DNA from: Deltaproteobacteria bacterium
Lineage (GTDB): Bacteria; Myxococcota_A; Polyangia; Haliangiales; Haliangiaceae
Assembly: GCA_005887925.1 (NCBI GenBank)
Contig: VBLP01000203.1
Coordinates: 1 to 33,122 of the forward strand
Direction of reading: 5' to 3'
Length of the DNA stretch: 33,122 nt
Of the stretch, positions 1 through 33,122 are shown one piece after another. Position 1 is the stretch's first letter. Each line of letters opens with the position of its first letter. Both the position numbers and the translations under genes were made by a program. The notes beneath the pieces are model-generated. The model was not told the DNA's origin and searched no databases. It saw nothing but the letters and a program-made list of their open reading frames with translations.

Positions 1-317
1 GGATCCACCGAGCCGACGAGATCCACCGGGCGGACGGGATCGACCAAGCCGACGAGATCCACCCGGCGGACGGGATCGACCAAGCCGACGAGATCCACCG
101 GGCCGATGGGATCCACCGAGCCGACGAGATCCACTGGGCCGACGAGATCCACCGGGCCGATGGGATCCACCGAGCCGACGAGATCCACCGGGCCGATGGG
201 ATCCACCGAGCCGATGGGATCCACCGGGCCGATGGGATCCACCGGGCCGATGGGATCCACCGGGCCGATGGGATCCACTGGGCCGATGGGATCCACCGAG
301 CCGACGGGATCGATCCG
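1..317 (+). repeat. 18-bp in-frame tandem repeat (hexapeptide MGSTGP / TRSTGP / MGSTEP variants), left part organised as a 36-bp higher-order unit; continues past left edge
   Basis: Repeated gggccgatgggatccacc / gagccgacgagatccacc units; frame +1 is open from base 1 ([29 protein letters not shown]...[12 protein letters not shown]). Confidence 0.9.
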
Positions 318-858
318 GTCGACCGGACTGAACGGGGCGGCCGCGATCGGCGGGGTGCCGCGGTTGATCACGCCGGGGCCGCCGGCGGAGTGGCGGCTGG
401 GGGAGCTGACGGTGGTGGTGGGAGCGGAGCGGGCGGAGCTGCGCTATGCGCGCGAGCCGGTGGGTTCGGTGCGCGCGACGCCGGAGGCGATCGTGGGGGC
501 AGTGCAGCGGGCGCGCGAGCGGCTGGCGGCGCGGTCGCGCGGGCCGGACGAGCTGTTGCCGGCGCTGGTGGCGGGGTATGGCGCGGTGCTGGCACGGCGC
601 GGCGGGCGCGTGGGGGACCGGGTGCCGCTGGTGGAGCTGCGCGCGGAGCTCGCGGGTACGCGGGCGCAGTTTGCATGGGACGTGGCGCGGCTGCGCCGCG
701 AGCGGCGGCTGGTGGTGGGCGGCCGCCGCATCGATCTGGGGGTGGCGGCCGGGCATGCGGCGGAGCGGCGGTCGCGCGTGGTGTGGATCGAGAATGATGG
801 TGGTGGCGGGAGCTATTTCGAGTGGTTTCGTCTGATCGGACAGGAGGCACGCTCGTGA
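1..858 (+). CDS. Repeat-containing protein with C-terminal possible winged-helix-like domain, 5'-partial, upstream partner of BrxD-like ATPase
   Basis: Frame open from position 1 through ORF 106..858; low-complexity hexapeptide repeats then a globular Arg/Leu-rich domain ending ...[29 protein letters not shown]; stop overlaps next GTG start. Confidence 0.6.
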
Positions 859-2222
859 CGAGAAGTACACCGCCAAGGCCGCCGCCGAGGCCGGCGTCCG
901 TCGAGGAGCTGGATCGGATCCAGGCGCGGCGCATCCTGGCCCAGATGGGCGAGAATGGAAAGCCGCCGGAGCTGGGGATTGCGCATGTGAATGCAGGGAA
1001 CGAGTCGTATTTGAGAGTGATCGATACGGCGTATATTCAAGATCTGATATGCACGGCAGAGGGATCGAGCTTCAAGCTGGTGCAGGGGACGTATGGAGCG
1101 GGGAAGACGCACTTCCTGTACTGCGTGCGAGACCTGGCGTGGCGGCGCCGGCTGTTGACGGCGCTGGTGACGATCTCGCCGAAGGAGTGTCCGTTCAACC
1201 GGCCGGGGGCGGTGTACCGGGCGGTGGCGCAGCGGATCGAGCGGCCGCGGGGGCCGGACGGCGACGAGCTGCGCGGGCTGGACGACTTGATCCGGCAGTG
1301 CGTGGAGGACCGGGTGGCGGAGGAGGGCCGCGACGAGACGCGGAGCTGGATCGACAAGGGGCTGGCGCGGGCGCAGCTGACGCGGCACTCGTTCCGCGAC
1401 GCGGTGGCGGGGTTCGCGCGCGCGGTGGTCGACGGCGACGAGCCGGCGGCGCGGCGGCTGGGAGCGTGGCTGCGCGGCGAGGACGTGTCGCTGGCGGAGG
1501 CGAAGGCGGCGGGGGTGTACGAGGTGCCGTCGAACGAGAACGGCTTCGGGATGCTGCGCTCGCTGGTGCAGCTGGTGCCGCGGCTGGGCTGGCAGGGCTG
1601 CGTGCTGCTGCTCGACGAGGCGGAGCGACGGCTGTCGGCGGACGACAAGCCGACCAAGGCGCTGGGCGAGACGGTGGATCACCTGCGCGAGCTGATCGAT
1701 CTGTGCGGGCGGTCGGAGCTGCCGCGGACGCTGGTGCTGTATGCGGTGACGCCGCTGTTCACCGAGCACGTGCTGCCGATGTATCCGGCGCTGCAGCAGC
1801 GGCTGGGCGCGCCGATCCAGTTCCTCTGCGCGAGCAATCCGAAGGCGCCGGTGATCGATCTGGAGGCGCTGGACCTCGAGCCGCGCAAGCTGCTGCTCGA
1901 GATGGGCGAGCGGCTGGCGGTGGTGGCGCGGCTGGCGTACGACTGGTCGCCGGCGGACAAGCTGGTGCAGGACAACCTGGAGCGGCTGGCGGTGGTGGTG
2001 ACGCAGGAGCAGCTCGAGGTCGGCCACCGCCGGTTCTTCGTGCGGCTGTGGGTGCGGCTGCTGGATCAGCTGCGGCTGGCAAAGCCGAAGGTGCTGACCG
2101 ACGACGAGCTGCGCAGCCTGGTGCGCGATGAACAGGCGCTGGTGACCGAGGAAGTGGACGAGTCGCAGGTGAATACGTTCTTCGGGATCCCGTATCTGGC
2201 AAAGCCGTTCAAGAAGAAGTGA
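855..2222 (+). CDS. BREX-type P-loop ATPase (BrxD/DUF2791-like)
   Basis: [20 protein letters not shown] Walker [31 protein letters not shown] Walker [21 protein letters not shown]-terminus. GTG at 855 overlaps upstream TGA (GTGA) with AGGAG upstream, so preferred over ATG 822. Confidence 0.7.
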
Positions 2223-2315
2223 TGCGCGCGGCGGCGGCGGCGTGATGCGCGCCGCGGCGGCGTAGGACGAAACGTCCTCTCGCGGTCGGGAGGCGGGCGT
2301 GGACATGCTGGGGGG

Positions 2316-3083
2316 ATGCTGCAGACGGACGTACAGCCGAAACCGGACCCCTACACGAAACCGAACGATCAGGCGCTGGCGCGCCTGCTCACGCCGCCGG
2401 CGGACCCGGCGCCGTCGGCGATCGAGGTGCAGGGCTGGCTGATGGCGGAGATCAACCTGCCGCGGCTGACCGGCAACATGGGGACGACGCGCGAGATCGG
2501 GACGAAGCTGTACGCGCTGTGGCTCAAGCTGGACGAGAACCAGATCACGGCGACGGCGGCGCTGGAGGGGTTCCAGAGCTGGACCGGAGAGCACCCGGAC
2601 GTCCTCGAGGCGTACGAAGGGGCGCGCCGCGGAATGCTCGACAAGCTCGGGGCGAAGAAGGACACGCGCGGGCGGAAGATCCTGCGAGCGCGCTCGGTCG
2701 CGACGGCGAACGCCTTCGGCGAGACGAAGCGACACCCGCATGGCCCCGATTCGCAGACGGGCAAGACGATCGCCTGCTTCGTGCTGGTGGACGACCCGAC
2801 CAGCTACTGGATCGGGCACTCGGGCTTCGGTCATCACGCGCAGCAGGACAGCCCGGCGCGCATGACGGCGCTGCTGCAGGGCGTCGGCAAGGTCGAGGAG
2901 TGGGAGGTGGATGTGTGCGCCGAGGTCGACTGCATGAAGCAGGCGCTGACCGCCGGCGCGGCCGAGGATGACCTGGTCTGGTACTGCTTCACCTGGAACG
3001 GCAAGACGAACCGCTGGACGGGTCGCTCGGCCTGCTACAATTGCCGGCAGTGGCTGTCCAAGCTGGTGCTGCGCACCGAGTGA
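2316..3083 (+). CDS. Uncharacterised protein with C-terminal cytidine-deaminase-like (CAE...CxxC) domain
   Basis: KTIACFVLVDDPTSYWIGHSG (beta hairpin), then WEVDVCAEVDCMKQAL and SACYNCRQWL: C-A-E plus CxxC Zn signature in the order and approximate spacing of toxin-type deaminases. Confidence 0.55.
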   Translation: MLQTDVQPKPDPYTKPNDQALARLLTPPADPAPSAIEVQGWLMAEINLPRLTGNMGTTREIGTKLYALWLKLDENQITATAALEGFQSWTGEHPDVLEAYEGARRGMLDKLGAKKDTRGRKILRARSVATANAFGETKRHPHGPDSQTGKTIACFVLVDDPTSYWIGHSGFGHHAQQDSPARMTALLQGVGKVEEWEVDVCAEVDCMKQALTAGAAEDDLVWYCFTWNGKTNRWTGRSACYNCRQWLSKLVLRTE

Positions 3084-23096: not shown

Positions 23097-23764
23097 GGCG
23101 AGGCTCCTTCCGCCCCGGCCGCGGCTTGCTCGGCCTTGAGGTGCGCGATCGCGGCGAACGGGTGGGCCGGTCCGTGGCAGCCCTGGCTGGCGCAGCTCAC
23201 CGAACCATCGCGCACCTGGTCGATCAGGCTCTTGTGGTCGCCGACCCGGCGCCACCCCGGCGCCTCGGTCGAGTGGCAGCGCATGCAGGTCGCGTTGGGG
23301 AACGGCTGGCGGATGTGGATCCTGGGCAGCGCCTCCTCGAGGCTGAGCTGGTGGAAGTGCAGCGCGTACTCGTAGACGTGCCGCATCCCGCCGATCTTGG
23401 TCGTGACCGTGCCGAACATCCCGTAGTCGGCGTGGCACGTGTAGCAGTTCTCCTCGCCGAACGCCTGGTTGCGGCCGTGGCGCGCGGCGAGCGACGTGCT
23501 GCCCGGGTTGGACGAGTCGGCGCCGAACGGCGTCATCACGTGGCACGAGCTGCAGAACGTCCGGGTCTTGGTCGCCTCGTAGCCGGCGATGCTGCCGTTG
23601 GCCGCGGTGCCGAGCGGCAGGATGCCGATCGCGACCAGCAGCACGAGCTTGGTGCCGCGGGTCAGCGCCGGCCGCGCGATCAGGAACCAGATCAGCAGGA
23701 CGGTGGCCAGCCCGGCGCAGATCAGCGCGAACAGGACGAACGGATTCGGGTGCTCAGTGGACAT
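23093..23764 (-). CDS. NapC/NirT/NrfH-family membrane-anchored multiheme cytochrome
   Basis: Two N-terminal hydrophobic segments then TFCSSCHVMTPFG, ENCYTCHADYGMFG, NATCMRCHSTEAPG, and SCASQGCHGPAHPF (CX4CH). Confidence 0.85.
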   Translation of the reverse strand: MSTEHPNPFVLFALICAGLATVLLIWFLIARPALTRGTKLVLLVAIGILPLGTAANGSIAGYEATKTRTFCSSCHVMTPFGADSSNPGSTSLAARHGRNQAFGEENCYTCHADYGMFGTVTTKIGGMRHVYEYALHFHQLSLEEALPRIHIRQPFPNATCMRCHSTEAPGWRRVGDHKSLIDQVRDGSVSCASQGCHGPAHPFAAIAHLKAEQAAAGAEGASP

Positions 23765-24971
23765 CGACCACTCCGTTGATGTGCGTGCTGCTGAGGACGC
23801 CGTCGGGACCCGGCGTGAGGATGATCATCCCGGTCGCGTCGATCGTCCGGGGGTGACACCCGGTGCAGCTGGCCAGCGTCATGGCCGGGCTGTGGCTCGG
23901 TGTCGTCGGCGGGACGCCGTGGCAGCTGCCGCACACCAGGCCGCCGGTCTGGGTCCACACCGGGCGGCCTGCGAGGTGGCACAGCGCGGTCGCGCAGGTC
24001 GCGGTGCTGCGGTCCCAGCGCAGCTCGGTGTTGACCTCGGCGGGCGGCGGCGAGTCGATGTGGCCCGCGTCGCCGATCTGGGTCGGCACCTGGTGGCAGG
24101 CGCTGCACGGTACCGGACCGCGCAGCCGCGACGGTGCCTCGATGTGCGCACGGTGAGCGCCGACGCCGATCGCGGTGATGAGCGTGTTGCCCGACAGATC
24201 GCCGGGCGGCGCGGGCGACGTGGCGTCGCCGTGGCAGCCAGAGCAGCCCGGGACGCGGCCGACCTGGACGGTGCCGTCGATGTGCGGCGCGCCCGGCGGA
24301 TGGCAGGTCTCGCAGTGATCCTGCGCGTGGCTCGGCGGTGGGGCGCCGTGGCAGCGATCGCAGGCGCCGGCGGGCGCCGGGTCGTCCCACCGCGGCTCGG
24401 TCGCGGTGCCGCCGGCGGCGTGCAGCACGTCGCCATGGCAGTACACGTTGCTGCACCGGCCGTCGTGGAACAGGGGGGGGCCGGGGCGATCACCCGGGTC
24501 GAGCGTGAATCCCGCGCGCGTGCCGAACGTGACCCGGGGCGGGGTCTGGATCGCGACGCCGCCGCTCAGGATGTGGCCCTCTGCGTTCCAGGTCGCGGGA
24601 ACGACATGGCATTCGCCGCACGCGAGCCCGGCGACCTCGCGGTGGACGACGTGCGCGTTGCTCGTCGGGCCAGCCCCGTGACAGGTGATGCACGCGGTCG
24701 GACCTGCGCTGTGGCAGGTCAGGCATGACACCTTCGCGGTGCCACCGGTGAAGTCGTCGCCATGGCAGCCGGCGCAGACCGAGAAGTTCCAGTTACGGCG
24801 CACCAGCTCGCGGACGTGGAAATCTTCACTCTTGGAGTCGAGGATCCCGGCAGGGTGGACCGACACGGTGGTCGTGCCGCCATCGGGCTGCGGCCGCACA
24901 TCCGAGCACGCGCCCAGCGCGAGCGCGGCCCACAGGCCGGCGGCGGCACATGGGGCGATGACCCACCTCAC
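23754..24971 (-). CDS. Multiheme lipoprotein cytochrome with mixed CxxCH (10) and CX4CH (2) motifs, Geobacter CxxxxCH-type
   Basis: LALGACSD lipobox; CAGCH, CLTCH, CITCH, CGECH, CSNVYCH, CDRCH, CETCH, CSGCH, CSACH, CATALCH, CGSCH, CTGCH. Confidence 0.88.
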   Translation of the reverse strand: MRWVIAPCAAAGLWAALALGACSDVRPQPDGGTTTVSVHPAGILDSKSEDFHVRELVRRNWNFSVCAGCHGDDFTGGTAKVSCLTCHSAGPTACITCHGAGPTSNAHVVHREVAGLACGECHVVPATWNAEGHILSGGVAIQTPPRVTFGTRAGFTLDPGDRPGPPLFHDGRCSNVYCHGDVLHAAGGTATEPRWDDPAPAGACDRCHGAPPPSHAQDHCETCHPPGAPHIDGTVQVGRVPGCSGCHGDATSPAPPGDLSGNTLITAIGVGAHRAHIEAPSRLRGPVPCSACHQVPTQIGDAGHIDSPPPAEVNTELRWDRSTATCATALCHLAGRPVWTQTGGLVCGSCHGVPPTTPSHSPAMTLASCTGCHPRTIDATGMIILTPGPDGVLSSTHINGVVDVH

Positions 24972-25022
24972 AGCATTCCGTGGGTGAAGGCCATTGGCGA
25001 AGGCTGCATGACGTCCCTCTAC

Positions 25023-25250
25023 TCACGAGCTGTGCCAGCCCACAGGCGGTGCTGCGGTGGGCTCCAGCGCAGCATCTGCGGGGGACCCCCGGGCGTCTGC
25101 AAGGATTGCGCGATCGTCGTCGAACAGGATCCGGCGCGGCGGGGTGTCGACGTCATCGAGCTGGCCGGACCGGACGGTCCACGCAAAGGCTGCGACCGCG
25201 ACGCCGGCGAACACCAGGGCGAGCGGGAGGATGAGATAGAGGATGGTCAT
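25023..25250 (-). CDS. ccoS: cbb3-type cytochrome oxidase assembly protein CcoS
   Basis: [46 protein letters not shown]; typical CcoS sequence, directly downstream of ccoI. Confidence 0.9.
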
Positions 25251-27667
25251 CGGGGGTCCTCGGCGCGGAACGCCCGGGAGCGCAGCGAGCTGGCGAGCAC
25301 CGTCAGCGAGCTGAGGGGCATGACCGCCGCGGCGATCAGCGGGTGGATCCAGCCGAGCACCGCGAGGCTGCCGGCGAGCAGGTTGTAGGCGAGCGAGAAC
25401 TTGAGGTTGCGCCGGATCGTCGCCAGCGTCGCCTGCGCGCCGGCGCAGGTCGCGGCGATCGCGGTGATGGACGGCGAGCGCAGGTAGACGTCGGCGGCCT
25501 CGATCGCGATCTCGGCGGCACCCGACACCGCGATGCCGGCGCTGGCGGCGGCCATCGCCGCGGCATCGTTGACACCGTCGCCGACCATCGCGACCGGGCC
25601 GTGCTCCCGCGCCGCCGTGACCGCGGCGACCTTGTCCTCGGGCGAGACCCGGCCGTGGCAGTGCGCCCACGGGATGCCGAGCGTGCCGCCGACCCGGCGG
25701 ACGACGCGCTCGTCGTCTCCGGACAGGAGCTGCACGTCCCAGCCCAGCCGGACCAGCGCGTCGAGCGCCTCGCGCGCGTCGTCGCGGATCGGATCGGCGA
25801 GCCCGGCGACCGCGACCATCGTGCCGTCGCACGCGATCACGATCGGGGTCTCGCCGCGATCGGCGAGCTCCGCGATCCAGCCGTCGATGATGGGGCGCGA
25901 CGGGCAGCGCTGGCGCACCCAGGCCGGCGCGCCGACCACGACGCGGTGATGGCCGACGGTCGCGGAGACGCCGCGGCCGAGCTCCTCGGTGATGTCGGTC
26001 GCCACCCCGGCGGGCCGGGCGTGGGCGCAGAGCGCGCGGGCGATCGGGTGGTTGCTGCCGGATTCGGCCGCCGCGGCCAGCGCGGTCGCGTCGACATCGC
26101 CGTACCAGCTGACCACCGCGAGCTTGCCCGCGGTCAACGTCCCGGTCTTGTCGACGAACAGCGTGCCCGGCGTCGCGAGCCGCTCGAGCGCATCGGCGCC
26201 CTTGATCAGCACGCCGCGCCGCGCCGCGCGGCCGAGCGCGACGGTGACCGCGAGCGGCGTCGCCAGCGCGAGCGCGCACGGACAGGTCACGATCAGGAGC
26301 GCCATCGCATGCTCGGCGCCGGCGGCCACCGAGTGGCCCCAGATCACCGACCAGCCGATCAGCGTCAGCGCGGCGACCGCCGACACCACGGCGACGAACC
26401 GGCCCGCGATCCGGTCGACCAGCCGCTCGATCGGCGACTTGACCGACAGCTGTGCGATGCTCGCGACCAGCCTGCCGACGCGGGTGACCTCGCCGACCGC
26501 CGTCGCGCAGACCGCGATCGGGGCGGCGACATTGACCGTGCCGGCGTGGACGTGCGCACCGGGCGCGACATCGATCGGCCGCGACTCGCCGGTCAGGACG
26601 CCGAGATCGATCGCCGAGCGCCCGGCCACGACGTCGCCGTCGACCGGGATGATCTCGCCGACCAGGACGCGCACGACGTCGCCCGGCACGATCGCCTCGA
26701 TCGGCACGTCGGTGGCCGCGCCGTCGGGCCGCTCCGGGCCGAGACGGTGGGCACGGCTCGGCGTCAGCGACAGCAAGAGCTCGGCCGCGGTCGAGGCCCG
26801 GCGCTGGTGACGCAGCACGATCCAGCGCGCGGTCAGGAGCAGGAACACCAGCATCGCGAGCGAGTCGAAGTAGATCTCGCCGACGCCGCGGATCACGTTG
26901 GCGCTGCCCCAGAGCAGCCCGGCCAGGATGCCGATCGACAGCGGCAGATCGAGGTGGAGCCGGCGCGCGCGCAGCGCACCCAGCGCGGTGCGGAAGAACG
27001 GCGTCGCGGCGAAGCCGAGGGCGGGCACCGCGACGCACAGCGACGCCCAGCGGAAGAAGCCGGTGTCGGCGCGCGACATGCCGCCGAACAGCCCGGCGTA
27101 CAGCGCGATCGCCAGCAGCATGAGGTTGCCGGCCGCGGCGCCCGCGACGCCGAGCTTGACGAGCAGCGCGCGATCCTCGCGGCGGCGCAGCGCGTCGCGC
27201 TCGAGGCCGCGGTAGGGGTGCGGCGGGTGGCCGATGCGGTCGAGGTAGCGCGCGATCTGGGCGAGCGAGGTGACGGCGGGATCCCACGCCACGTCGGCGC
27301 GGCTGCGCCCGAGATCGACGCGCACGTCGCTGACCCCGGCGAGGCAGCGCGGCGCGCTCTCGACCAGCCACACGCACGCGGTGCAGCGCAGGTCCTCGAG
27401 GTAGAGGGCCGCGCGCGCCGTGCCGCCGGGGCCGGCCTGCACGTGCAGGCGCTGAAACGCCGGATCATCGAGCTCGGTGTAGCCGTGATCGGTCGTCCGC
27501 GCCGGCTCGGCGGTCTCGCGCAGCGCGTAGAACCGCTCGAGGCCGTTGGCGGCGATCGCGCCGTACACGACCTCGCATCCGGAACAGCAGAAGGCCGATG
27601 CCCGGCCGGCCGGCACCGGCAGGCTGCAGTGGCGGCACGGCGCGGGGGCAACCGCGGCGGCGGTCAT
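25247..27667 (-). CDS. ccoI: Cation (copper)-translocating P-type ATPase CcoI
   Basis: [26 protein letters not shown]-terminal metal domain, [42 protein letters not shown]. Confidence 0.93.
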
Positions 27668-28350
27668 GGCGCGCTCCGGTGGCAGTGCGGCGCCGTCGCG
27701 CCCGTCGCGCCGGCATCGGCCCAGCGCCCGGCCAGCGTCGCGAGCCCGAGGACGATCAGGATGCCCGCCGAGATCACCGGCATGCGGCGCCGCATCGCAT
27801 CGAGCACGGCGCCGCCGAGCGCGAGCACGCCGGTCATCGCCGGCACGGTGCCGAGCCAGAACACCGCCATCACCAGCGCGCCGGCCACCGGGCTCGCTGT
27901 GCCGGCCGCCGAGACCACGAACGCCCACAGCCAGCCGCACGGCAAGAGGCCGGTCAGCACGCCGACGAGCCACGCCCGCCCGGCGGGGCGCCGGCCGCGG
28001 ATCTGGACCAGCCCGCGCTGGAACAGCGCGCCGCCGCTCGACTGGACCGTGATCCAGCCTGCCGCGACGGCGATCGCGCGCACGCCCCAGCCGACGATCG
28101 CACCGCCCGCGACGATCGCCGCGACATGCTGCACCGCCGCGAGGTGGCCCGCGACGTCGACCGCGCTGCCGACGAGGCCGGCGAGCGCGCCGAGCGCGCC
28201 GTACGTCGTCAGCCGCCCCAGCGCGTGGATCAGCGCGAGCCGCAGCGAGCGCGCGCCGCCGTGCAGCCCGACCAGCGGCCCGCACATCGCGACGCAGTGC
28301 AGGCTCCCCGCGAGGCTCGATCCGAGGATCGCGGCCCAGAGTGCGATCAT
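27664..28350 (-). CDS. Sulfite exporter TauE/SafE-like (DsbD_2-type) membrane protein of cbb3 locus
   Basis: GSLHCVAMCGPLVGLHGG, LGRLTTYGALGALAGLVG, GLLPCGWLWAFV. Confidence 0.85.
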   Translation of the reverse strand: MIALWAAILGSSLAGSLHCVAMCGPLVGLHGGARSLRLALIHALGRLTTYGALGALAGLVGSAVDVAGHLAAVQHVAAIVAGGAIVGWGVRAIAVAAGWITVQSSGGALFQRGLVQIRGRRPAGRAWLVGVLTGLLPCGWLWAFVVSAAGTASPVAGALVMAVFWLGTVPAMTGVLALGGAVLDAMRRRMPVISAGILIVLGLATLAGRWADAGATGATAPHCHRSAP

Positions 28351-28498
28351 CGAGCCCCCACAACGCCAGACGACGCCCGGAGGGAGTCGACGGATCTCGT
28401 CTCGGTGCGACCGGGGAGCCACGAATGGTTCTGATGAGGAGCTTCCGGTGAGCGCGAAGCCCCTCTCGATCGACCCGTCGCCCACGGCACCGGTGTCA

Positions 28499-28948
28499 TC
28501 ATCTGGCCTCGACCGCGACGTGCTGGACGTAGTGCGCGCCGCCGCGATCGGCGGCGATGGTGAGGTCGTGCCAGCCGCGGCGCTCGCGGAGGTCGCCGCG
28601 ATAGTGGCCGCCGCCGGTGGTCGCGAGCTCGAGGTCGAGCAGCTCGCCGGCGTGCGCGCGCTGGTAGCCGGTGATGTGGACCCGCGCGCCCTCGATCGCC
28701 CGGCCGGCCGCGTCGGACACGGTCACGTCGACCGCGCCGGCCGCGATCGCGACCTCGGCGTGCCAGCCCAGCGCGCGGCTGGCCGACGCGCGGTCGAGCT
28801 CGTCGTCGTAGTGCGCGGCCCGGTCGTAGTACTGCGGGATCACCTGGGTGCCGCCGTCGTTGGCGACCACCGCGAGGATCACCATCGCGATGACGTTGCC
28901 GGCGAGCAGGCCGACGATCGCGATGATCCAGGTCACGCGCGGCGTCAT
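28499..28948 (-). CDS. ccoH: FixH/CcoH family protein
   Basis: N-terminal TM, YYDRAAHYDDELDRASASRALGWHAEV, GGHYRGDLRERRGWHDLTI; between ccoG and TauE-like/ccoI. Confidence 0.8.
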   Translation of the reverse strand: MTPRVTWIIAIVGLLAGNVIAMVILAVVANDGGTQVIPQYYDRAAHYDDELDRASASRALGWHAEVAIAAGAVDVTVSDAAGRAIEGARVHITGYQRAHAGELLDLELATTGGGHYRGDLRERRGWHDLTIAADRGGAHYVQHVAVEAR

Positions 28949-30360
28949 CGCTCACCTCGCTCGCGGCCGCGGTCGTCGGCTTCGCCGCCGTCGGGGCCGA
29001 GCAGCGTCACGGTGACGATCCGCTCGAACTGCTGATCGTCGAAGATCCGCAGGTGGACGCGGCGCTCGCCGTGGTGGAACGTCGACGCCGCGGCCTCGAC
29101 GTAGAGCGGGATCGGCTGGGCGTGATGCGGCCGGATCTCCCACACCGCGAGCGGCGACTTGAGCACCGCGTCGGGCGAGCCGGCCAGCGAGATGACGTAG
29201 TGGCGAGGCTCGTCGCTCTCGTTCTCGATCTTGAGCTGGACCGCCGACGCGATCCGGCCGTCGGGCAGGGTCACGAAGCTCGGCCCGTCGTTGCGCAGCG
29301 CGGTCACCTCGGAGGTCGCGCGCGACGCCACCGCCCACACGAACAGCGAGCCGACGATCGCCAGCAGCGCCGGATACACCACCAGGCGCGGACGCAACAG
29401 CTTGCGCGGCACGCCGGCGAGCTGGTCCTGCGACGTGTAGCCGATCAGGTGGCGCGGCCGGTGCAGCTTGTCCATCACCGCGTCGCACGCGTCGATGCAC
29501 TGGGCGCAGCCGACGCACTCCATCTGCAGGCCGTCGCGGATGTCGATGCCGGTCGGGCACACCGCGACGCAGGCGCTGCAGTCGACGCAGTCACCGCGCG
29601 CGCCGGTCGCGACCGCGAGCTTCTTCGCCTTGGTCCGCGGCTCACCGCGCCGCGCGTCGTAGCCGACGATCAGCGACTGGCGATCGAGCAGCACCGACTG
29701 CAGCCGGCCGTACGGGCACGCCACGATGCAGGTCTGCTCGCGGAACCAGCCGAAGTTGGCGAGCATCAGCACGGTGACCAGCGCCACCACGCCGAACCCG
29801 CCGGTGTGCACCGCCGGCGACTCGAGCACCCAGACGCGCAGCCGGTCGACCCCGACGAAGTACGCGAGGAACACGTTGGCGATCGCGAACGCCAGCGCGG
29901 CGTAGATCGCCCACTTGATCAGCCGGCGCGGCGCGAACCTCGACAGCCGGGCCTGCTGCGCCGGCGTGCCCTCGAGCCAGCGCTCGATCGGCCGGAACAC
30001 GTGCTCGAGGTACACCGTGTGCGGACAGCCCCAGCCGCACCACACGCGGCCCAGCAGCGCCGTCAGCACGAACACCGCCAGCACGATGGTCAGGCCGAGC
30101 AGCAGCAGCAGGAAGCCGTTGCTCGGCCGGAACACCGCGCCGAACGCCGACAGCTCGCGCGTCACCAGGTCGATCAGCAGCGCGGGCCGGCCGCCGATGC
30201 GGACGAGCGGCAGCGCGACGAACAGCGCGATCAGCGCCCACGCCACGATCCGGCGGCGACGCAGGAACCGGCCGCGCGCCAGCTTGGGACGGATCCAGTT
30301 GCGCGTGCCGTCCTCGTTGAGGGTCGACAGGATGCGGTGGTGCGGCAGCGGCGGGGACAC
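28945..30360 (-). CDS. ccoG: Cytochrome c oxidase accessory protein CcoG (ferredoxin-type, 2x[4Fe-4S])
   Basis: GRVWCGWGCPHTVYLEHVFRPIERWLEG, CIVACPYGRLQSVLLDRQSLIVGYD, CVDCSACVAVCPTGIDIRDGLQMECVGCAQCIDACD. Confidence 0.94.
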   Translation of the reverse strand: MSPPLPHHRILSTLNEDGTRNWIRPKLARGRFLRRRRIVAWALIALFVALPLVRIGGRPALLIDLVTRELSAFGAVFRPSNGFLLLLLGLTIVLAVFVLTALLGRVWCGWGCPHTVYLEHVFRPIERWLEGTPAQQARLSRFAPRRLIKWAIYAALAFAIANVFLAYFVGVDRLRVWVLESPAVHTGGFGVVALVTVLMLANFGWFREQTCIVACPYGRLQSVLLDRQSLIVGYDARRGEPRTKAKKLAVATGARGDCVDCSACVAVCPTGIDIRDGLQMECVGCAQCIDACDAVMDKLHRPRHLIGYTSQDQLAGVPRKLLRPRLVVYPALLAIVGSLFVWAVASRATSEVTALRNDGPSFVTLPDGRIASAVQLKIENESDEPRHYVISLAGSPDAVLKSPLAVWEIRPHHAQPIPLYVEAAASTFHHGERRVHLRIFDDQQFERIVTVTLLGPDGGEADDRGRERGER

Positions 30361-30386
30361 GATGGCTCCTTCGATGGATGCGGCGA

Positions 30387-31043
30387 TCAGGGCGCGAGCG
30401 CGGGCACCGACTTGCCCTGCGGCTCCTTGCCGGGGAGGTTCTTGCCGCGCAGCGACGACACGTAGGTCGCGACGGCGATGATCTCGGCCGGCTTCATCAC
30501 CTCGCCCCAGGCGATCATCGCGGTGCCCGGAGCGCCGCCGAGGATCGTCCCGTAGAGGTCCAGCCGCGTCGTGCCGTGGATCTGGTAGAGGTCGGTGAGG
30601 TTCGGCCCGATCTGGCCGCGGCCGTCGGCGGCGTGGCAGCCGATGCAGCGGCTGGTGAACACCTCGGCGCCGCGCGCGACGACATCGGGGTTCTGCACGC
30701 CCGCGGCGAGCATCTCCTCGGTGACGCTCGGCCCGCCGCCGCCCGGCCCACCCCTGTAGCCGGCCTGCCAGCCGGCGAGCGCGATCTGGTACTTCTCGGC
30801 CGGCGTCTTGCCCCAGCCCGCGATGTTGTAATAGGCGAAGTACAGGAACGCGACCACGAAGGTCGCGGCGAAGATCAGGTTCCACCAGCCGGGGAGCGGG
30901 TTGTCGTACTCGCGGATCCCGTCGTAGGCGTGATCCATCAGGCGCGCCTGATCCAGCGTGTCGTCGGCCCTGTCGTGGGCCGGGCTCGCATCGCGCGAAC
31001 CGACGACCGGGATGTCATCTGCAGTGGTGGCGTGCATCGTCAT
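30387..31043 (-). CDS. ccoP: cbb3 oxidase subunit III CcoP, monoheme form
   Basis: YDGIREYDNPLPGWWNLIFAATFVVAFLYFAYY; single CIGCH heme motif; PAEKYQ. Confidence 0.9.
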   Translation of the reverse strand: MTMHATTADDIPVVGSRDASPAHDRADDTLDQARLMDHAYDGIREYDNPLPGWWNLIFAATFVVAFLYFAYYNIAGWGKTPAEKYQIALAGWQAGYRGGPGGGGPSVTEEMLAAGVQNPDVVARGAEVFTSRCIGCHAADGRGQIGPNLTDLYQIHGTTRLDLYGTILGGAPGTAMIAWGEVMKPAEIIAVATYVSSLRGKNLPGKEPQGKSVPALAP

Positions 31044-31227
31044 CGGGGTGCTCCCTGGGCATCGGCGTCATCGGCGAGTGGCAGCTGGGCGCAGGCGGCG
31101 TGCTCGGCGGCGCGGCGCCGTCCGCCATGCCGGATCAGCACGCCGGCGAACACCATCAGGAACAGGACCAGCGACAGCTCGGCGTACTGCACCGGCGTCA
31201 ACGCGGACACGAGCTCGGACAGGCGGA

Positions 31228-31231
<4 letters not shown>
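31040..31231 (-). CDS. ccoQ: CcoQ-like small subunit
   Basis: VQYAELSLVLFLMVFAGVLIRHGGRRR, single TM, between ccoNO and ccoP; GTG start overlapping ccoNO TGA. Confidence 0.75.

Positions 31232-33122
<1,891 letters not shown>

What the first reader, a model, noticed from the sequence alone, without database searches (positions are those of the whole stretch)
2316..3083. Deaminase-like protein beside a BREX-type ATPase
C-terminal ACFVLVDD-SYWIGHSG hairpin, VCAEVDCMKQAL and ACYNC reproduce the beta1-beta2 / C-A-E / CxxC layout of bacterial toxin-type nucleic-acid/nucleotide deaminases (YwqJ/BURPS668_1122-like, recalled). No immunity-like gene follows, so it could be a defence effector or stand-alone editor rather than a polymorphic toxin. 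N-terminal 130 residues are unrecognised.
Basis: partly seen in the sequence, partly recalled or inferred. Interest (0 to 1): 0.62.

Follow-up and report, generated by a model that had tools for sequence, protein, structure and literature searches.

The report
Solitary YwqJ-like deaminase, no immunity gene
The gene encodes an enzyme of the cytidine-deaminase fold whose relatives are bacterial toxins, but here and in about 16 actinomycete genomes it stands alone, without an immunity or delivery gene, and its place beside a BREX-type ATPase looks like coincidence.

Summary
ORF 2316-3083 (255 aa) ends in a deaminase domain with C201-A-E203 and C240-x-x-C243. A profile of it and four Polyangium relatives finds cytidine deaminases in the PDB (E 0.003), aligned on these motifs. 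A second structure model (pLDDT about 80) has CDA-fold order; its best PDB matches are blasticidin-S and cytidine deaminases. Relatives reach Pfam YwqJ-deaminase above its cut-off, so the family guess was right, though the window protein itself matches no library.

New here: the whole protein (helical ~140-aa N-domain plus YwqJ-like domain) belongs to a two-domain family in 15 of 347 Streptosporangiales genomes and one other actinomycete. In Myxococcota only the window's copy was found. Each copy inspected is solitary, without signal peptide, immunity gene or shared neighbour. The zinc and catalytic residues are invariant; the protein evolves fast.

The BREX part fails: the BrxD orthologue in a sister genome (72% identity) lacks the deaminase, as do three others, and no deaminase relative lies by BrxD.

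Best guess (not shown): a cytosolic, self-contained conflict effector, deaminating nucleotides or nucleic acid once the N-domain releases it. Rivals: injected toxin with unlinked immunity; small-molecule deaminase.

The parts
2316..3083 (+). two-domain solitary deaminase gene, 255 aa
   Evidence: ORF; full-length family HMM built without the window scores it 111.7 bits
2418..2729 (+). helical N-terminal domain (residues about 35-138: helices 35-46, 48-52, 55-73, 79-92, 94-138), no Pfam match
   Evidence: AlphaFold2 model m4cde35e2e756; family alignment A5
2751..3080 (+). YwqJ-like deaminase domain (residues 146-255), strand-strand-helix-helix-strand-strand-helix order
2916..2924 (+). C201-A202-E203: zinc ligand and catalytic glutamate motif
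   Evidence: profile alignment to cytidine deaminases; C and E invariant in 16
3033..3044 (+). C240-Y-N-C243: zinc-ligand pair
2223..2315 (+). 93-nt spacer after the BrxD stop, in the same reading frame, 78% GC; its RNA fold is no better than shuffles (z -0.5)
822..2222 (+). neighbour, probably not part of the unit: BrxC/BrxD-family AAA+ ATPase
   Evidence: orthologues without deaminase

Best explanation
A cytosolic, single-gene conflict effector. The C-terminal YwqJ-like zinc deaminase (shown by profile and by relatives' Pfam matches; activity inferred) hydrolytically deaminates a cytosine- or adenine-type base, as a free nucleotide or in nucleic acid (inferred). The helical, fast-evolving N-terminal domain keeps it silent or senses a trigger such as phage infection (inferred), which would explain why no immunity gene is needed. 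It is not part of the BREX-like module beside it.
For: Deaminase fold and intact catalytic residues. Membership through relatives in PF14431 YwqJ-deaminase (29.7 and 26.1 bits, cut-off 25.9; 13 of 16 members match at E <= 0.1). Solitary in every neighbourhood inspected, no neighbour shared beyond close relatives; 9 of 15 are followed by a gene called on the opposite strand, three of these being doubtful small ORFs. No signal peptide or membrane segment (19-residue hydropathy at most 1.36). No T6SS sheath in any of the 16 actinomycete genomes tested and a phage-type sheath in only 2 of 16, so no common contractile injector. Patchy (17 of 347 genomes of the order including remnants), dispensable (G397 copy decayed between the same flanking genes), fast-evolving: whole-protein dN/dS about 0.36-0.56 against 0.014 for the adjacent icd gene, with the N-domain faster than the deaminase domain in two of four pairs. 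B. subtilis YwqJ stops growth without visible effect on chromosome or rRNA, and its authors suggest small-molecule targets (PMC8321402).
Against: No defence-island context; no PADLOC match for the family beyond two weak single-member hits. No activity or phage data. Related domains in the same bacterial class lie in T6SS effector loci. An N-domain switch is pure inference.
Confidence: 0.42

Rival explanations
1. Injected interbacterial toxin: the N-domain is a cargo signal (T6SS in the myxobacterium, T7SS or other in actinomycetes) and immunity is unlinked, or the targets are eukaryotes.
For: Polyangium relatives of the deaminase domain lie in VgrG-PAAR-DUF2169 loci, and one relative is a PAAR-YwqJ fusion. 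B. subtilis YwqJ is an LXG toxin active between cells in biofilms (PMC8321402). The window genome has one T6SS sheath gene.
Against: No recognisable adjacent immunity gene in the 15 inspected loci; no common contractile injector in the carriers; no PAAR, RHS, LXG or WXG Pfam match in family members.
Confidence: 0.28
2. Small-molecule deaminase: detoxifies a nucleoside antibiotic or salvages modified nucleosides, like blasticidin-S deaminase.
For: Top structural matches are blasticidin-S deaminase and Cdd; solitary, patchy, dispensable gene; no immunity needed.
Against: Foldseek E-values of 0.16 and up do not discriminate between CDA families; the extra ~140-aa domain and fast evolution are unusual for such enzymes; sequence relatives are toxins.
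Confidence: 0.2
3. Effector of a BREX/Shango-like module with the upstream BrxD-like ATPase.
For: Same strand, 93-nt gap, same frame.
Against: The 72%-identical BrxD of sister genome G053 has no deaminase; three further orthologues sit with other ATPase and helicase genes instead; none of the 15 other deaminase loci has BrxD.
Confidence: 0.06

Closest known systems
YwqJ-like deaminase (Pfam PF14431; B. subtilis YwqJ toxin C-terminus)
   Same: deaminase fold, C-[AG]-E and CxxC; relatives score above the Pfam cut-off
   Different: no LXG domain, no ywqK-like immunity partner, stand-alone gene of 240-271 aa; window copy itself below detection
Polyangium T6SS VgrG/PAAR-linked deaminase effectors (L003, L004, L006, L013, L032) and the PAAR fusion L033
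   Same: homologous deaminase domain (26-36% identity in pairwise matches to four of them; alignment)
   Different: unrelated N-terminal parts, next to VgrG/PAAR/DUF2169
Blasticidin-S deaminase and tetrameric cytidine deaminase Cdd
   Same: three-cysteine zinc site layout and fold
   Different: no N-terminal helical domain; about 18-20% identity in the fold match
AvcID deoxycytidylate-deaminase toxin/antitoxin (PMC10511110, abstract)
   Same: a deaminase toxin used against phage
   Different: has an RNA antitoxin; no such RNA was searched for systematically here, and no sequence relation to AvcD was tested

Membership tests
CDA-fold zinc deaminase superfamily | C/H-x-E and C-x-x-C zinc/catalytic motifs at helix starts | tested here: met
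CDA-fold zinc deaminase superfamily | fold matching solved deaminases | tested here: met
   model pLDDT 79.7; Foldseek probability 0.99 to 2z3g, TM 0.60 by target length, but E only 0.16
YwqJ-like deaminase (PF14431) | score above Pfam cut-off | tested here: inconclusive
   window: no match; homologues L016 and L033 above cut-off; 13 of 16 family members match at E <= 0.1
Polymorphic toxin system | adjacent immunity gene | tested here: not met
Polymorphic toxin system | recognised delivery domain (RHS, LXG, PAAR) or signal peptide | tested here: not met
BREX-associated effector | conserved linkage to BREX genes | tested here: not met
BREX BrxD (neighbour gene) | NF033438 equivalog cut-off | tested here: not met
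   111.6 bits against 350
All of the above | deaminase activity and substrate | not testable with these tools
   needs an assay

The most novel reading that the evidence does not exclude
A self-contained, single-gene immune deaminase of actinomycetes (and one myxobacterium): a fast-evolving sensor domain fused to a toxin-derived deaminase that acts inside its own cell on phage or host nucleotides or nucleic acid, an APOBEC-like use of a toxin domain.
Probability: 0.25. Interest if true: 0.7.

Novelty: new variant of a known kind. Interest (0 to 1): 0.42.

Why it matters
Toxin deaminases have been the source of base editors and of ideas on how immune deaminases arose. A conserved family that lacks delivery and immunity parts but keeps every catalytic residue would be a candidate intermediate between weapon and resident enzyme, and offers compact uncharacterised deaminases to test.

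Tried and rejected
BREX linkage: rejected by orthologue neighbourhoods. eCIS or T6SS delivery of the whole family: no common sheath. RNA structure in the spacer as an antitoxin or attenuator: z -0.5. First structure model on a mixed alignment: pLDDT 47.6, usable only for strand order. Viral contigs: no relative; plasmids: none for the window protein, one RHS-protein tail for the actinomycete query. A tree of the deaminase domain puts the window copy outside the supported actinomycete clades, but basal supports are weak and two rows are very long, so no direction of transfer is claimed. Viral fold library: nothing convincing. The full-length profile found no significant solved relative.

Full report
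Observation. The ORF, its coordinates and the quoted motifs are correct. As a single sequence it matches nothing convincing in Pfam, NCBIfam or PADLOC and no solved structure by sequence. The window is most of contig C758 of a 12.2-Mb draft genome.

Deaminase identity. Searching 318 genomes of its class gave weak but motif-aligned matches in Polyangium-type genomes. A profile of five sequences (A2) matched cytidine deaminases in the PDB at E 0.003-0.006 with the C-x-E and CxxC motifs aligned, and led to Microbispora and Sphaerisporangium proteins of 248 aa. One of these (L016) and a PAAR fusion (L033) exceed the Pfam YwqJ-deaminase cut-off. The second AlphaFold2 model (16 sequences, pLDDT 79.7) has the CDA order, with C201 before the helix 202-212 and C240 before the helix 241-247. 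Its best fold matches are blasticidin-S deaminase (probability 0.99, TM 0.60 by target length) and Cdd; the E-values (0.16 and above) are weak by themselves. Atomic zinc geometry could not be measured.

A two-domain family. The profile A3 found 17 of 347 Streptosporangiales genomes, of which G397 is decayed and G398 only a fragment; one more actinomycete was found in a class sample (G1081). No other Myxococcota carried it (0 of 236 others). Sixteen full-length proteins, the window's included, align with 18 invariant residues, among them W41 and A129 in the N-terminal half, the S-G of the first hairpin, C201, E203, C240 and C243. An HMM without the window finds it at 111.7 bits, but the N-domain alone is weak (8.9 bits; of 2000 shuffles 1765 were reported, best 7.6). 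The G1081 protein shares the segment ETKRH..GPDS with the window protein just before the deaminase domain.

Context. Gene clusters around the copies share nothing, except that close relatives (Microbispora, G397) share a chromosomal slot. In 9 of 15 loci the next called gene downstream is on the opposite strand, three of these being doubtful small ORFs (the gene calls are automatic and crude). Four same-strand downstream neighbours were scanned: a phosphatase, a weak resolvase match and two without match. For the window, a sister genome holds BrxD with its small upstream partner and no deaminase. In G004, G213 and G037 the BrxD orthologue is followed by a second ATPase and, in two of them, a helicase; in G037 these were confirmed as BrxD-like and BrxHI/SngC-like by family search.

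Selection. dN/dS (NG86) between close pairs is 0.36-0.56 overall, against 0.014 for icd beside the Microbispora copies. In two of four pairs the N-domain is much faster (1.14 against 0.08; 0.58 against 0.17), in the other two the halves are equal. These are small pairwise samples.

Mechanism. Shown: deaminase fold by profile, family, conserved catalytic residues, solitary state, absence of a signal peptide by hydropathy. Inferred: activity, substrate, cytosolic action, N-domain control, role in conflict. Literature: induction of B. subtilis YwqJ stops growth with no effect seen on chromosome or rRNA (PMC8321402). Zhang et al. 2012 list Imm6 as the YwqJ immunity family (PMC3482391); none was recognised beside the copies, but not every neighbour was scanned and no genome-wide search for Imm6 was run.

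Verdict. A real, enzymatically intact-looking, stand-alone variant of the YwqJ-like deaminases; the BREX association is most likely chance.

Noticed in passing
window 1-858: Tandem array of 17.3 copies of an 18-bp unit (1-311) encoding collagen-like STGPMG repeats at the truncated start of the ORF upstream of BrxD; its C-terminal part recurs beside BrxD in G053 (L039:256-807).
   Followed up: partly
L045:5143-13432, L046:4309-11813, L047:1-9175: BrxD orthologues in three Myxococcota genomes lie in a multi-gene island: SNF2/DrmD-like helicase, small partner, BrxD, second BrxD-like ATPase and (two of three) BrxHI/SngC-like helicase: a possible Shango/BREX-like defence system.
   Followed up: partly
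L019:5571-12518, L022:5610-12618, L032:5215-11731: Polyangium VgrG loci where VgrG (90-96% identity) and DUF2169 (72-83%) are conserved but the deaminase effector between them differs (48% or no detectable similarity), as if exchanged.
   Followed up: partly
L033:9193-10461: PAAR protein with prePAAR motif fused to a C-terminal YwqJ-type deaminase in an 11.3-Mb genome.
   Followed up: no
L071, L072, L073, L075, L084, L085, L017 upstream regions: A shared GGCAATCGG-TC-CATCGC-like element upstream of the start codon in one clade, perhaps a common promoter (seen by eye).
   Followed up: no
window 23757-33120: Minus-strand genes for multihaem cytochromes, a FixG-like ferredoxin protein and a fused FixN-FixO cbb3 oxidase ORF.
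   Followed up: no
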